NCBI RefSeq assembly: GCF_900129295.1 | Contig: NZ_FQUU01000005.1 | Coordinates: 124,001 to 188,000 of the forward strand | Length of the DNA stretch: 64,000 bases | From: Flavisolibacter ginsengisoli DSM 18119 | GTDB lineage: Bacteria > Bacteroidota > Bacteroidia > Chitinophagales > Chitinophagaceae | Reading direction: 5' to 3' | Part shown: positions 6,509-16,567 of the stretch, one piece after another | How the letters are laid out: the number at the start of each line of letters is the position of its first letter | How positions within the stretch are numbered: position 1 is the first letter of the stretch | The notes under the pieces: model-generated | Seen by the model: only the letters and a program-made list of their open reading frames with translations | Told to the model about the DNA's origin: nothing | The model's database searches: none | Position numbers and translations under genes: made by a program

Positions 6509-6567
6509 CCGATGAGTCCCGCGATGGATATCTTAAACTGTTAGTTACTGCTGCGGTGACTCATCGG
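6509..6567 (+). repeat. REP palindrome family 1, copy a
   Basis: Arms CCGATGAGTC (6509-6518) and GACTCATCGG (6558-6567) are perfectly complementary, with a second inner block CTGCGG. It shares the flank AGAANGAGTGCAANTGACG with copy d next to the transposase, and GGGAAAGG after the right arm with copies b and d. Here the stem may extend outward: TGCAAATG (6489-6496) pairs with CATTTGCA (6574-6581). It lies 7 kb from the RAYT gene. Confidence 0.85.
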
Positions 6568-13359: not shown

Positions 13360-13417
13360 CCGATGATTTACTGCAACAGTAGTTTTCCTTCGGAATCTCT
13401 CCCTGGGGATTTATCGG
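13360..13417 (-). repeat. REP palindrome family 1, copy e (degenerate)
   Basis: On the minus strand it starts CCGATAAATCCCCAGGGAGA and ends GCAGTAAATCATCGG. The loop segment AGGGAGAGATTCCGAAGG is closest to that of copy c, so c and e form one subtype; several arm bases have decayed. Confidence 0.7.
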
Positions 13418-13466
13418 TTTTGATAAGATAGCAAAGGAAGAAAAAGGGAAAGGGACGTTATTATCT

Positions 13467-13525
13467 CCGATGAGTCCCACGCAGGATTTTATACGGTGTT
13501 AGCCACTACTGTGGTGACTCATCGG
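13467..13525 (+). repeat. REP palindrome family 1, copy b
   Basis: Arms CCGATGAGTC (13467-13476) and GACTCATCGG (13516-13525), inner block CACGCAGG / CTGTGG, loop with GTGTTAGCCACTAC. It belongs to the same subtype as copies a and d and is followed by the same GGAAAGG flank. Confidence 0.85.
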
Positions 13526-13671: not shown

Positions 13672-13716
13672 CCCGGGGTCTTCCCTGCAAGGCATTGTGT
13701 TTGGGGAGACCCCGGG
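13672..13716 (+). repeat. Second palindrome family, copy 3
   Basis: CCCGGGGTC (13672-13680) pairs with GACCCCGGG (13708-13716) and the stem is followed by AATTTTCC as in copy 1 at 5365-5407. It sits between two REP family 1 copies. Confidence 0.75.
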
Positions 13717-13756
13717 AATTTTCCTGATAAAGCATCCTTGAAGTGCACTTTCTTTC

Positions 13757-13814
13757 CCGATGAGTCACCGCAGCAGAAGCATGCCTTCTCAATCTCTCCC
13801 GCGGGACTCATCGG
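13757..13814 (-). repeat. REP palindrome family 1, copy c, overlapping the 3' end of the RAYT gene
   Basis: On the minus strand it runs CCGATGAGTCCCGCGGGAGA ... CTGCTGCGGTGACTCATCGG. Its first arm contains the stop codon of the transposase gene: the gene ends AAC CGA TGA, with CGATGA being part of the arm. Confidence 0.88.
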
Positions 13815-14416
13815 TTTTGTTTATCCCACTCGCTTTCTTCCAGTTCCAGCAGCAATCCCATAAACTCCCGGTAATCCCGTAGCAATTTATTGTTTCTGTT
13901 TCCCTTTTCATAGAAAGCCGCAGAACTATGAGCATAGTCATACGTGTTTTTACATAACCCCCACCTCCCGACACATGGATTCTGATGCATGTAATTTAGC
14001 TTTTGCAGGATGAATTTTTCTGTTCTGCATTCTTTTACATCAAAACTGCCCTGCCACAGTTGATGAAGTTTGCCTTTTTTACGCTCAGCATCTACTACAC
14101 CCTGGGTAAGAATAGCAAGTGTTTCCTTCTCATTTCGCGCCTGCAAATTTTTTATGATCTCGTAACCTATGAATCGCTTAAGATTGCCGATCACTGTATT
14201 TAAAGACTTATTATCACTTGCAAAGAATAATAAAAGGTGCACATGGTTTGGCATAATAGTATAACCGACTACCTGGTGGCCTTTTTGGTTAAGATGAGAA
14301 AGGAAATAATAGACTACATCATAGGCATTTGTTTTACCAATCAAGTGTAGCCATTTGTAACAGGTGAACGTTATAAAATAAATGCCTGGTCTGGCTACGG
14401 GTTTGTGTACAGCCAT
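13808..14416 (-). CDS. REP-associated tyrosine transposase (RAYT, IS200-like Y1 family)
   Basis: A 202-aa Y1 transposase: the early strand GIYFITFTCY, the HUH motif in IMPNHVHLLL (H58, H60) and the catalytic Tyr in KLNYMHQNP (Y142), which is the YxxxNP arrangement typical of REP-associated enzymes rather than of IS200/IS605 TnpA. Such proteins cut and rejoin single-stranded REP hairpins. The protein lacks nothing obvious and appears intact. The stop codon lies inside REP copy c, and the last residues (SEWDKQNR) run straight into it. The plus-strand neighbours share no function with it. Confidence 0.88.
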   Translation of the reverse strand: MAVHKPVARPGIYFITFTCYKWLHLIGKTNAYDVVYYFLSHLNQKGHQVVGYTIMPNHVHLLLFFASDNKSLNTVIGNLKRFIGYEIIKNLQARNEKETLAILTQGVVDAERKKGKLHQLWQGSFDVKECRTEKFILQKLNYMHQNPCVGRWGLCKNTYDYAHSSAAFYEKGNRNNKLLRDYREFMGLLLELEESEWDKQNR

Positions 14417-14464
14417 GGGGTGATAAGATAGTAAATTGGAAGAAAGAGTGCAAGTGACGGTTCT

Positions 14465-14523
14465 CCGATGAGTCCCTCGCAGGATTACCTAAGATGTTAG
14501 CCACTGCTGCGGTGACTCATCGG
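14465..14523 (+). repeat. REP palindrome family 1, copy d, upstream of the RAYT gene
   Basis: Arms CCGATGAGTC (14465-14474) and GACTCATCGG (14514-14523), inner TCGCAG / CTGCGG. It lies 49 bp upstream of the transposase start and has the same upstream flank as copy a. The hairpin may therefore also sit in the promoter region of the gene. Confidence 0.88.
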
Positions 14524-14584
14524 GAAAGGCAGGTGCGAAGAATGGGTTAGTTTCATTGTTTGACATATGAGGCATTTTGAATGA

Positions 14585-16567
14585 TCACCAATTCAAAAGC
14601 TTGTTAATACTGTTCTCCAGTCTTGCCTTCGCCAGGAAATTCTTTTCCAATTCCAAATTAAATGGAACTGCAGTATCCAATGAGGCGCAACGCATAACAG
14701 GTGCATCCAGCCAGGAGAAACAATGCTCTGCGATCCAGGCGCCCAACTCTCCTCCAATACCACCAGTGAGGGTGTCTTCATGTAGGATCAGTACTTTGCC
14801 CGTGCGTTTTACAGAGGCGGCAATAGCATCGTAATCAAGTGGCAATAAACTGCGGAGGTCAAGGATGTCTATAGATACATGCGTATTCTCCATAGCGTAA
14901 TCTTCCGCCCAGTGAACACCTGCGCCATAAGTGATGATAGATAGATCATCACCGGTTTGCACCTGGCGGGCCTTGCCAATTTCTATTTCATAATATACTT
15001 CGGGTACTGGTCCGCTGATGCTGCGGTACAATCCTTTGTGCTCGAAGTACATGACCGGGTTGGGATCATTGATGGCGGCTATGAGCAATCCTTTGGCATC
15101 GGATGGGGTAGATGGATATACTACTTTTAGTCCTGGTGTATGCACAAACCAGGCTTCATTGCTCTGGCTGTGAAAAGGACCAGCCCCTACGCCGCCACCT
15201 GTAGGCATACGTATCACCACATCAGCGTTTTGCCCCCAGCGGTAGTAGATCTTAGCCAGGTTATTAACGATTTGGTTGAAGCCTACAGCCGCAAAATCGG
15301 CAAACTGCATTTCCATCATGGACTTGAAGCCTTCGAGGCTCAAGCCTAACGCAGCGCCAACAATAGCGCTTTCACAAAGGGGTGTGTTGCGTACACGCTC
15401 CTTTCCAAACTGCTGCACAAAGCCTTCAGTGATCTTAAAGGCACCGCCATATTCCGCTATATCTTGTCCCATTAAAATAAGGTTGGGATGCTGCTCCATG
15501 GATTGCTGCAGTCCTTCTTTAATGGCATCTATCAAACGTATTTCCCTTGTAGTATCTAATGTTGCAGGATGATTGATGGCTGATACACGGGGCGCATATA
15601 CATCTTTCAATTCAATGTCAGTGGACACAACAATAGGAGGCGAATTAAAACCTTTTTGCAGTTCTTCTTCTATGGTCTTTTTTTGATCAGCACGGATAGA
15701 ACTCACCTCAGTTTCTGTCAATAGCTTTTCTTTCACCAGCCATTGCTCATAATTTTTAATAGGATCTTTCACTTCCCATGCTTCGAACAATTCTTTGGGA
15801 ACGTACTTGGTGCCACTGGCTTCTTCATGGCCGCGCATACGGAAGGTGAGGCATTCGATCAAATAAGGCTTCTGGTTTTTGATGCAGTATTCCCGCACGC
15901 CTTTAATGGTATCGTAAACTGTGAGCACATTGTTGCCATCGATGATGACCGATTCCATGCCATAACCTTTAGCCCTGTCGGCGAGACTGGCGCATCGGTA
16001 TTGCTCCTGCACGGGTGTACTTAAACCATAGCCATTATTCTCTATCAGGAAGATAACGGGCAGGTCCCAGACAGCTGCCGTATTCAATGCTTCATGGAAG
16101 TCGCCTTCGCTGGTGCCACCATCTCCTGTAAAGGCCAGGGATACCTTGTTCTCTTTTTTAAGTTTTGCCGCAAGTGCTACGCCATCGGCAATAGCCAATT
16201 GAGGACCAAGGTGGGAGATCATGCCGCAGATATGGTGCTCGCGACTTCCAAAATGAAAGCTTCTTTCCCGCCCTTTTGAATAACCATCGCTGCTACCCTG
16301 CCATTGTTTGAACAATTTATGCAGCGGCATGTTGCGGGCGGTGAATACCCCAAGGTTGCGGTGCAGGGGCATGATCCATTCATCAGTTTCCAAAGCCATG
16401 GTAGCGCCAACGGCAATGGCTTCCTGGCCAATGCCACTAAACCATTTAGAGATCTTTCCCTGGCGAAGCAACACGAGCATCTTCTCTTCAATGAGCCTTG
16501 GCCAGAGTAGTTGCTTATAAAGATGCAGCAGTTCTTCGTTAGTGAGTCCTTTGCGGTGAAAGTTCAT
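14585..16567 (-). CDS. 2-oxoacid dehydrogenase E1, fused alpha and beta subunits
   Basis: The 660-aa protein joins an E1-alpha-like half (about 1-310) to an E1-beta-like half (about 330-660). The alpha half has the thiamine-diphosphate motif GDGGTSEGDFHEALN ... NNGYG (about 148-185). The beta half has MGQDIAEYGGAFKITEGFVQ, a QFADF run and the C-terminal LHEDTLTGGIGGELGAWI. The enzyme decarboxylates a branched-chain 2-oxoacid or pyruvate and transfers the acyl group to a lipoyl E2. E2 and E3 are not adjacent. Fused E1 proteins of this length are common in Bacteroidota. It precedes the holin-like gene product by 15 bp, so the two may be co-transcribed. Confidence 0.88.
   Translation of the reverse strand: MNFHRKGLTNEELLHLYKQLLWPRLIEEKMLVLLRQGKISKWFSGIGQEAIAVGATMALETDEWIMPLHRNLGVFTARNMPLHKLFKQWQGSSDGYSKGRERSFHFGSREHHICGMISHLGPQLAIADGVALAAKLKKENKVSLAFTGDGGTSEGDFHEALNTAAVWDLPVIFLIENNGYGLSTPVQEQYRCASLADRAKGYGMESVIIDGNNVLTVYDTIKGVREYCIKNQKPYLIECLTFRMRGHEEASGTKYVPKELFEAWEVKDPIKNYEQWLVKEKLLTETEVSSIRADQKKTIEEELQKGFNSPPIVVSTDIELKDVYAPRVSAINHPATLDTTREIRLIDAIKEGLQQSMEQHPNLILMGQDIAEYGGAFKITEGFVQQFGKERVRNTPLCESAIVGAALGLSLEGFKSMMEMQFADFAAVGFNQIVNNLAKIYYRWGQNADVVIRMPTGGGVGAGPFHSQSNEAWFVHTPGLKVVYPSTPSDAKGLLIAAINDPNPVMYFEHKGLYRSISGPVPEVYYEIEIGKARQVQTGDDLSIITYGAGVHWAEDYAMENTHVSIDILDLRSLLPLDYDAIAASVKRTGKVLILHEDTLTGGIGGELGAWIAEHCFSWLDAPVMRCASLDTAVPFNLELEKNFLAKARLENSINKLLNW

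What the first reader, a model, noticed from the sequence alone, without database searches (positions are those of the whole stretch)
13757..14523. RAYT transposase gene bracketed by inverted REP palindromes, one of which supplies its stop codon
The Y1 transposase (HUH at H58/H60, catalytic Y142) is flanked at its 3' end by REP copy c and upstream of its start by copy d, in opposite orientation. The gene's final codons CGA TGA are part of the palindrome arm CCGATGAGTC, so translation stops inside the REP and a loss of the REP would change the C-terminus. This physically ties the transposase to its cognate palindrome, a strong argument for co-inheritance (REPtron). RAYT/REP systems are described mostly for gammaproteobacteria; in Bacteroidota they are little described.
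Basis: partly seen in the sequence, partly recalled or inferred. Interest (0 to 1): 0.75.

Follow-up and report, generated by a model that had tools for sequence, protein, structure and literature searches.

The report
Jumping gene with REP hairpin ends
The window holds a transposase gene boxed in by two mirrored DNA hairpins, and comparison with shrunken copies in the same genome and with relatives suggests that gene plus hairpins move together as one small mobile element, although the stop codon lying inside a hairpin is only a local quirk.

Summary
Confirmed: a 202-aa HUH/Y1 RAYT (13808-14416, minus) lies between two inverted ~59-bp palindromes; its TGA and last codon lie in the arm of the downstream one. 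The overlap is no RAYT rule: of 49 distinct intact RAYT loci (window included) with such a palindrome near the stop, only the window gene overlaps it; the rest stop 1-82 nt before. RAYT remnants in the same genome share it, so it is old in this lineage. The protein fits TnpA-REP subclass 2.6 (RAYT group 5), already described in Bacteroidetes. More interesting: the palindromes look like the ends of a mobile unit. Of 17 hairpins found, 16 form eight outward-footed inverted pairs; one encloses the RAYT, four keep cassette ends or a RAYT remnant. One ~312-bp element occurs twice, 98% identical, in unrelated flanks. Two RAYT cassettes of another REP type are alike from foot to foot (within ~7 bp), and two examples from other Bacteroidota (97-98%) agree. 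This goes against published statements that RAYT genes show no mobility, and resembles the autonomous ancestor proposed for REPINs. No two-sided empty site was found; Bertels et al. 2017 could not be read.

The parts
13808..14416 (-). RAYT / TnpA-REP gene, 202 aa, HUH H58/H60, Y142
   Evidence: Pfam Y1_Tnp 25.3 bits over cut-off 23; NCBIfam REP_Tyr_transpos 68.6 bits, below its cut-off of 80; fold match 4er8
13757..13814 (-). downstream REP hairpin (end of the cassette), 10-bp arms, bulged T beside the outer arm
13808..13810 (-). RAYT stop codon TGA inside the inner arm (13805-13814) of the downstream REP
14465..14523 (+). upstream REP hairpin, inverted relative to the downstream one; 48 nt before the ATG
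13749..13756 (.). left foot TTTCTTTC, similar in deletion derivatives; inferred left end of the mobile unit
14524..14529 (.). right foot GAAAGG; inferred right end of the mobile unit
13467..13525 (+). REP hairpin of the CCGATGAGTC type, right half of an outward-footed pair without RAYT
13360..13417 (-). degenerate REP (16 of 20 arm bases), left half of the same pair; reads QNR then TAA like the RAYT 3' end
   Evidence: weak on its own: each of 5 shuffles gave 11-17 matches of 14 or more, no stable fold (coordinates one base off), and it helped train the model
6509..6567 (+). lone REP hairpin of the same type, no partner found by the model
13672..13716 (.). REP-like palindrome of another type (arms CCCGGGGTC/GACCCCGGG), the type that flanks the RAYT on contig C9

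Best explanation
The window locus 13749-14529 is an intact copy of a small mobile element whose two ends are REP hairpins in inverted orientation and whose only gene is a RAYT (TnpA-REP subclass 2.6). Shown: the hairpins occur as outward-footed inverted pairs; at least four pairs besides the intact one hold cassette ends or a RAYT remnant; some cassettes and shortened copies are found at unrelated sites with similarity ending at the hairpin feet. Inferred: the RAYT, an HUH single-strand nuclease, binds the folded ends, cuts at the feet and moves the unit, and acts in trans on copies that have lost the gene. The stop codon inside one arm is an incidental extension of the gene into its own end in this lineage.
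For: (1) The 16 paired hairpins of 17 found form eight pairs, each '-' then '+' with feet outward, 182-783 bp long (two of these pairs are neighbours, so one '+-' spacing of 356 bp also exists). (2) Deletion derivatives: C35, C6 and C10 hold cassette ends with the middle missing, and the C21 pair encloses 63 bp encoding RAYT residues 1-21. (3) A ~312-bp element is present twice on C30, 97.8% identical over 316 bp, unrelated flanks in the 1.3-1.4 kb compared, similarity ending at the feet. Against congener G004, the best match to the neighbouring gene starts at the last base of the right foot. (4) Two broken RAYT cassettes of another REP type (C21, C17) are 84% alike over 695 columns, from foot to foot within about 7 bp. 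(5) Elsewhere: in genome G034 two whole cassettes 97% identical with different flanks, edges at the feet, a third partial one (656 bp, 99%), and five REP pairs of ~190 bp without gene; one cassette 98% identical over 768 bp in two genomes of one genus with different flanks. (6) Among 90 distinct intact RAYT loci, 60 have a palindrome with inner triplet GTC/GAC upstream and/or downstream; next triplet 5 (downstream) and 7 (upstream); bulge outward in 31 of 43 upstream and 35 of 46 downstream. Controls: 44 of 87 at the stop against 5 of 81 and 2 of 79 further downstream and 0 of 90 in gene bodies. (7) Fold: pLDDT 91.9; best PDB match is the RAYT bound to a REP hairpin (4er8).
Against: No two-sided empty site: synteny around the sites looked at is broken in the congeners searched. 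Only one intact copy of the window cassette exists in the genome, so its own mobility is not shown. Of 14 pairs of related cassettes inspected, the left edge of similarity lay at a foot-like motif in 9 of 13 that could be judged and the right edge in 5 of 13; both in 3. In one of these 3 (L019/L025) the automatic search had found no palindrome of 8 bp or more at the L019 stop, and L025 is a broken gene. Gene conversion or recombination between REPs, or another transposase, could move such units. 30 of 90 loci had no such palindrome found. Hairpin-like matches also occur in 4 of 12 congeners, so the hairpins predate this genome.
Confidence: 0.72

Rival explanations
1. Classical REPtron: the RAYT is a resident, vertically inherited gene that spreads REPs or REPINs in trans but does not itself move; cassette duplications come from segmental duplication or recombination between REPs.
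For: Published view for other subclasses (PMC2817692, PMC8266576, PMC6006769, PMC8049555; passages seen). Only one intact CCGATGAGTC cassette in this genome. The C30 copies show that units without a gene spread.
Against: RAYT cassettes themselves lie at unrelated sites with similarity limited to foot-to-foot (C21/C17; L054/L059; L019/L025). None of 5 congeners in which the neighbouring E1 gene was matched (of 11 searched) has the RAYT beside it, within the 0.9-1.5 kb held.
Confidence: 0.2
2. The stop codon in the REP arm is a functional coupling (translation end tied to the hairpin, e.g. mRNA 3' protection, or loss of function if the REP is lost).
For: The overlap is retained in diverged remnants of the same genome: C35 and C21 end in EEQNR-stop, C10 in NR-stop (with another in-frame stop two codons before).
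Against: 48 of 49 loci with such a palindrome have the stop 1-82 nt before it, median over all 49 being 11 nt; the C6 remnant is out of frame; the C-terminal tail is not conserved; the closest relative (62% identical, L042) stops 24 nt before its REP.
Confidence: 0.05
3. The palindromes are mainly transcription terminators or mRNA-stabilising hairpins and the RAYT association is incidental.
For: The perfect window copies fold well. Of six pairs checked against ORFs of at least 100 aa, four (C35, C6, the second C30 copy, window 13360-13525) lie between them and two (first C30 copy, C10) overlap only the start of one.
Against: Association with RAYTs in 60 of 90 loci, biased outward orientation, and RAYT remnants inside pairs.
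Confidence: 0.03

Closest known systems
TnpA-REP subclass 2.6 of Quentin et al. 2018 (= RAYT group 5 of Bertels et al. 2017)
   Same: Bacteroidota; NHVH; Y-M-H-Q-N-P; HUH-Y spacing of 82 residues (paper: median 82); conserved SS after the core; flanked by structures without a GT[AG]G foot, with copies elsewhere in the genome
   Different: [quoted passage not shown] here near-identical cassettes lie at different sites. The motif of the ends (GTC/GAC core, outward bulge, GAA-type foot) was derived here; the paper's supplement was not seen
REPIN / RAYT systems of Pseudomonas and E. coli
   Same: Inverted REP pairs, RAYT flanked by inverted REPs, REP sequence follows RAYT sequence
   Different: REPs of ~59 bp with variable middle, foot TTCTTYC/GAAAG-like in place of GTAG, few copies (17 found), some pairs still carry RAYT remnants
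IS200/IS605 (IS608, ISDra2)
   Same: HUH Y1 transposase fold, hairpin ends, small one-gene unit
   Different: Y---NP in place of Y---Q; ends are inverted repeats, which IS200/IS605 lack
MITEs
   Same: Two inverted ends, internal deletion of a larger element, presumed movement in trans
   Different: Presumed to be driven by an HUH single-strand enzyme; no target duplication seen by eye
TIRtrons of Di Nocera et al. 2013
   Same: RAYT-like genes flanked by long inverted repeats, some overlapping the gene's 3' end ('3'ov')
   Different: Bacteroidota example with deletion derivatives and copies alike foot to foot

Membership tests
TnpA-REP subclass 2.6 / RAYT group 5 | HUH motif NH[LIV]H | tested here: met
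   NHVH at 57-60
TnpA-REP subclass 2.6 / RAYT group 5 | Y motif YIH[QN]NP | tested here: met
   YMHQNP at 142-147, with I to M
TnpA-REP subclass 2.6 / RAYT group 5 | long HUH to Y distance (median 82 aa) | tested here: met
   H60 to Y142 = 82; how the paper counts it was not checked
TnpA-REP subclass 2.6 / RAYT group 5 | WQ motif | tested here: inconclusive
   WQ at 122-123 of the window protein, but most aligned relatives have other letters there and the paper's position was not checked
TnpA-REP subclass 2.6 / RAYT group 5 | SS motif after the core | tested here: met
   S164 at 90% or more and S165 invariant in A1 and A2
[quoted passage not shown]
   the 2018 profile is not at hand
TnpA-REP subclass 2.6 / RAYT group 5 | flanking atypical secondary structures with copies elsewhere, no GT[AG]G foot | tested here: met
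NCBIfam NF047646 REP_Tyr_transpos | curated score of 80 bits | tested here: not met
   68.6 bits, E 5.2e-19: related, below the cut-off
IS200/IS605 insertion sequence (TnpA class 1) | Y---Q motif | tested here: not met
   N146 at Y+4
IS200/IS605 insertion sequence (TnpA class 1) | no terminal inverted repeats | tested here: not met
   ends are inverted REPs
REPIN | two inverted REPs with a short spacer, dispersed in the genome | tested here: met
   8 outward pairs, 7 without an intact RAYT
REPIN | GTAG/GTGG foot | tested here: not met
   feet are TTCTTYC/GAAAG-like
Autonomous transposable element | whole cassettes at different sites with sharp ends | tested here: met
   C21/C17 in this genome, L054/L059, L019/L025: 3 of 14 pairs inspected have both edges at feet; shown for relatives and another REP type, not for the window copy itself
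Autonomous transposable element | empty site before insertion | tested here: inconclusive
   one side only, C30 against G004; none for C35 or C10
Autonomous transposable element | transposition activity of the protein | not testable with these tools
   needs biochemistry

The most novel reading that the evidence does not exclude
Subclass 2.6 RAYTs of Bacteroidota are still autonomous transposons with REP ends, the ancestral state that Bertels and Rainey (2011) postulated, and this genome shows REPIN-like elements being born from them by internal deletion, with pairs caught at several stages from whole cassette to bare hairpin pair.
Probability: 0.6. Interest if true: 0.7.

Novelty: new variant of a known kind. 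Interest (0 to 1): 0.55.

Why it matters
RAYTs are cited as the first domesticated bacterial transposases because no mobility of their genes was seen. A RAYT clade whose cassettes move with their REPs, beside shortened copies that keep only the ends, would supply the missing link between IS200-like elements and REPINs and make the origin of REPINs testable in ordinary Bacteroidota.

Tried and rejected
Rejected: stop overlap as a general RAYT feature (1 of 49). Rejected: window RAYT as a true IS200 (Y---NP). No support for plasmid or phage carriage: 5 plasmid records, 24-30% identical, and no phage record. Covariation within the 16 own hairpins is no better than shuffles (2 pairs changed on both sides; 74 of 500 shuffles reach that), as expected for close copies. 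A fixed target sequence and target duplications were looked for by eye in the flanks and not found. Two-sided empty sites were sought at C30, C35 and C10 in 12 congeners and, by the E1 gene, at the window site in 11, without success; C6, C21 and the lone 6509 copy were not searched. PHROGs gave nothing; a PDB sequence search gave only weak matches (best E 0.28, a transposase chain, 2xo6). The first genome pattern had too short a gap and found nothing; it was repeated with a wider gap. Bertels et al. 2017 is not held, so what it says on group 5 is not known to me beyond citations.

Full report
Observation. The sequence is as described. Four palindromes with perfect 10-bp arms lie in the window (8 arm matches, 1.58 expected, none of 100 shuffles as many) and fold far better than shuffles as single-stranded DNA. 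The RAYT ORF is 13808-14416 on the minus strand. Its stop TGA and its last codon lie within the inner arm of the palindrome 13757-13814; the other palindrome, 14465-14523, lies 48 nt before the ATG in the opposite orientation. H58, H60 and Y142 are invariant in two alignments of 23 and 30 sequences. An AlphaFold model (mean pLDDT 91.9, pTM 0.87) matches best the REP-associated tyrosine transposase bound to a REP hairpin (4er8, Foldseek E 7.5e-7, TM 0.53 over the query, 14% identity), then IS200/IS605-type transposases.

What family. Pfam gives Y1_Tnp just above its cut-off; NCBIfam's REP-associated tyrosine transposase model scores 68.6 bits, below its cut-off of 80. The letters NHVH and YMHQNP, the 82-residue spacing and the SS motif fit TnpA-REP subclass 2.6 of PMC6006769 (found passages and section 25 read), which that paper equates with RAYT group 5. 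[quoted passage not shown] The system is therefore not undescribed in this phylum. By protein search 114 of 195 genomes drawn from the same family, own genome included, carry a relative at E 0.001 or better. Of 280 stretches in named genomes that encode a relative, the best 80 were kept; they include Chitinophagaceae, Cytophagales and many unnamed Bacteroidetes assemblies; the nearest is Flavisolibacter longurius, 62% (L042). The upstream hairpin of Flaviaesturariibacter sp. RYN_278 (L043) reads the same as one in G204, a genome of the window's genus, so the window probably comes from a relative of that genus (inference).

The stop overlap. I took 110 RAYT loci (30, 80), kept 101 with an intact gene and 90 distinct ones (9 and 11 dropped). 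In 46 of 90 a perfect palindrome of at least 8 bp whose inner triplet is GTC lies between 20 nt before and 120 nt after the stop; the next commonest inner triplet occurs in 5. Counting GTC anywhere in the arm gives 49. In those 49 the distance from stop codon to arm is 1-82 nt, median 11, except for the window gene, where it is -7. Among loci complete over the stretch, 44 of 87 have one at the stop, against 5 of 81 and 2 of 79 at 400 and 800 nt downstream, 0 of 90 in gene bodies and 0.1 on average in shuffles. So RAYT genes of this kind normally stop just before the hairpin, and the window gene runs into it. In the same genome, RAYT remnants at C35 and C21:46.9 kb end EEQNR-stop inside the arm; the one at C10 ends NR-stop there but has an in-frame stop two codons earlier; the one at C6 is out of frame; the degenerate copy at 13360 reads QNR with TAA. 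The overlap is thus old within this element lineage but not a property of the family. The C-terminal tail is not conserved.

What the hairpins are. Upstream and downstream hairpins carry an unpaired base that mostly lies on the outer side: in 31 of 43 upstream copies (4 opposite, 8 undecided) and in 35 of 46 downstream copies (1 opposite, 10 undecided). The two ends are thus mirror images, often followed outward by a foot of the type TTC.. / ..GAA. Of the 90 loci, 29 have such a palindrome on both sides, 17 downstream only, 14 upstream only and 30 on neither. The outer seven bases of the arm differ between genomes and follow RAYT similarity (Mantel rho 0.40, 0 of 2000 permutations, 49 loci; rho 0.39 for pairs under 80% identity). 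At least three RAYT types with three arm types coexist in the window's genome (CCGATGAGTC in the window; TCCGCGAGTC at C21 and C17; CACCCGGGGTC at C9); a fourth, more distant RAYT at C23 has no such palindrome in the stretch held.

Pairs and shortened copies. BLAST with the cassette and a covariance model built from 16 own hairpins give 17 hairpins in the genome (18 rows, one being the other strand of a listed hairpin). Sixteen trained the model and the 17th is nearly identical to one of them, so the model adds no independent find, and only 150 of 855 first-look candidates were scored. Sixteen of 17 form eight pairs, each '-' then '+' with feet outward, 182 to 783 bp long; two pairs are neighbours, 13360-13525 and the RAYT cassette. 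The window's 6509 copy is alone, and a half hairpin at C21:46.1 kb was not counted. The 783-bp pair holds the RAYT. The pairs on C35, C6 and C10 hold cassette sequence from both ends with the middle missing. The C21:46.7-kb pair encloses 63 bp encoding RAYT residues 1-21 (85.7% at protein level; DNA 86% over 58 bp). The remaining three (window 13360-13525 and two on C30) show little cassette sequence beyond the hairpins. The two on C30 are 97.8% identical over 316 bp and their flanks are unrelated in the 1.3-1.4 kb compared; similarity runs from TTC.TTTCTTCC to GAAAAGAA. In congener G004 the best match to the gene beside the first of them begins at the last base of that right foot, a one-sided junction; the gene is internally repetitive and weaker matches begin elsewhere. 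Across the 16 aligned hairpins the inner arm has 16 mismatches to consensus and the outer arm 7 (inner worse in 8 copies, outer worse in 1), which suggests that the outer arm matters more. In 12 congeners, cassette DNA matches only parts of the gene in G202 and G204, and hairpin matches, weaker than any in the window's genome save that of one other-strand row, occur in G195, G200, G202 and G204; some in G204 have the same CCGATGAGTC arms.

Whole cassettes. Two broken RAYT cassettes of the second REP type, at C21:44567-45243 and C17:7762-8453, are 84% alike over 695 columns, beginning and ending within about 7 bp of the feet, with unrelated flanks. In genome G034 two whole cassettes are 97% identical with edges at the feet; a third is cut at 656 bp (99% identical), where another cassette's left end follows. 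In four stretches of that genome chosen from the hits, five hairpin pairs of about 190 bp lack the gene; they account for 10 of 33 hairpins listed there, others being tandem or unpaired. L019 and L025, from two genomes of one genus, share 768 bp at 98% in different flanks, edges at TTCTTCCC and CGAAGGAA; L025 is a broken gene and the palindrome search found none at the L019 stop. Of the 14 pairs inspected, chosen for high similarity, the left edge lay at a foot-like motif in 9 of 13 that could be judged, the right edge in 5 of 13, both in 3. The others ended earlier or could not be judged, which may reflect divergence or nested insertions.

Mechanism. Most likely the RAYT binds the folded ends as single strands, cuts at the feet and moves the unit, and serves shortened copies in trans. 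The predicted fold, the catalytic residues, the mirrored ends and, in some pairs, the sharp edges of similarity are shown; binding, cutting, strand choice and movement are inferred. Recombination between REPs or another transposase remains possible.

Comparison with print. PMC2817692 found no signs of IS-like mobility of RAYTs and noted REPs immediately downstream of the stop (passages). [quoted passage not shown] PMC8266576 says that there is no evidence of tnpA-REP mobility (passages), and PMC8049555 calls RAYTs single-copy and vertically inherited (passages). PMC3116915 proposed that REPINs derive from REPs that flanked an ancestral autonomous element (passages). PMC3733652 describes inverted repeats overlapping the 3' ends of such genes (section 16 and legends). 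Seven library searches listed no paper whose title or abstract start reports mobile RAYT cassettes in Bacteroidota; the library lacks Bertels et al. 2017, so I do not claim that nobody has reported it.

Limits. No two-sided empty site. The RAYT is absent beside the neighbouring E1 gene in 5 of 5 congeners in which that gene was matched (of 11 searched), within the 0.9-1.5 kb held, but synteny there is lost in any case. The window cassette itself is single and intact, so its present activity is unknown.

Noticed in passing
window 13672-13716: A REP-like palindrome of another type (CCCGGGGTC arms, 6 exact copies in the genome) sits about 30 bp outside the cassette; it is the type that flanks the RAYT on contig C9.
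   Followed up: partly
window 13360-13525: Outward-footed REP pair without gene, about 220 bp from the cassette; its left half is degenerate but still reads QNR-stop like the RAYT end.
   Followed up: partly
L237 1020-1335 (G000:C30:130319-130634): The deletion derivative abuts a gene with repeated DGGYIMAGQT-like units; in congener G004 similar coding sequence continues past that point, so the element may have truncated it.
   Followed up: partly
alignment A3, 16 hairpins: The outer arm of the hairpins is better conserved than the inner one (7 against 16 mismatches), which may point to recognition of one arm and foot.
   Followed up: partly
L203, L205 (G034:C36, C4): The right end of these cassettes carries two or more REPs in tandem, up to five in a row on C36, like a growing BIME.
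   Followed up: no
G000:C10:48190-48531 and G000:C9:54474-54782: Two other Y1 transposases with strong Pfam scores (103.7 and 66.2 bits), perhaps true IS200 elements.
   Followed up: no
window 14585-16567: Fused alpha-beta E1 dehydrogenase gene of 660 aa beside the cassette, matched in 5 of 11 congeners at the strict cut-off used.
   Followed up: partly
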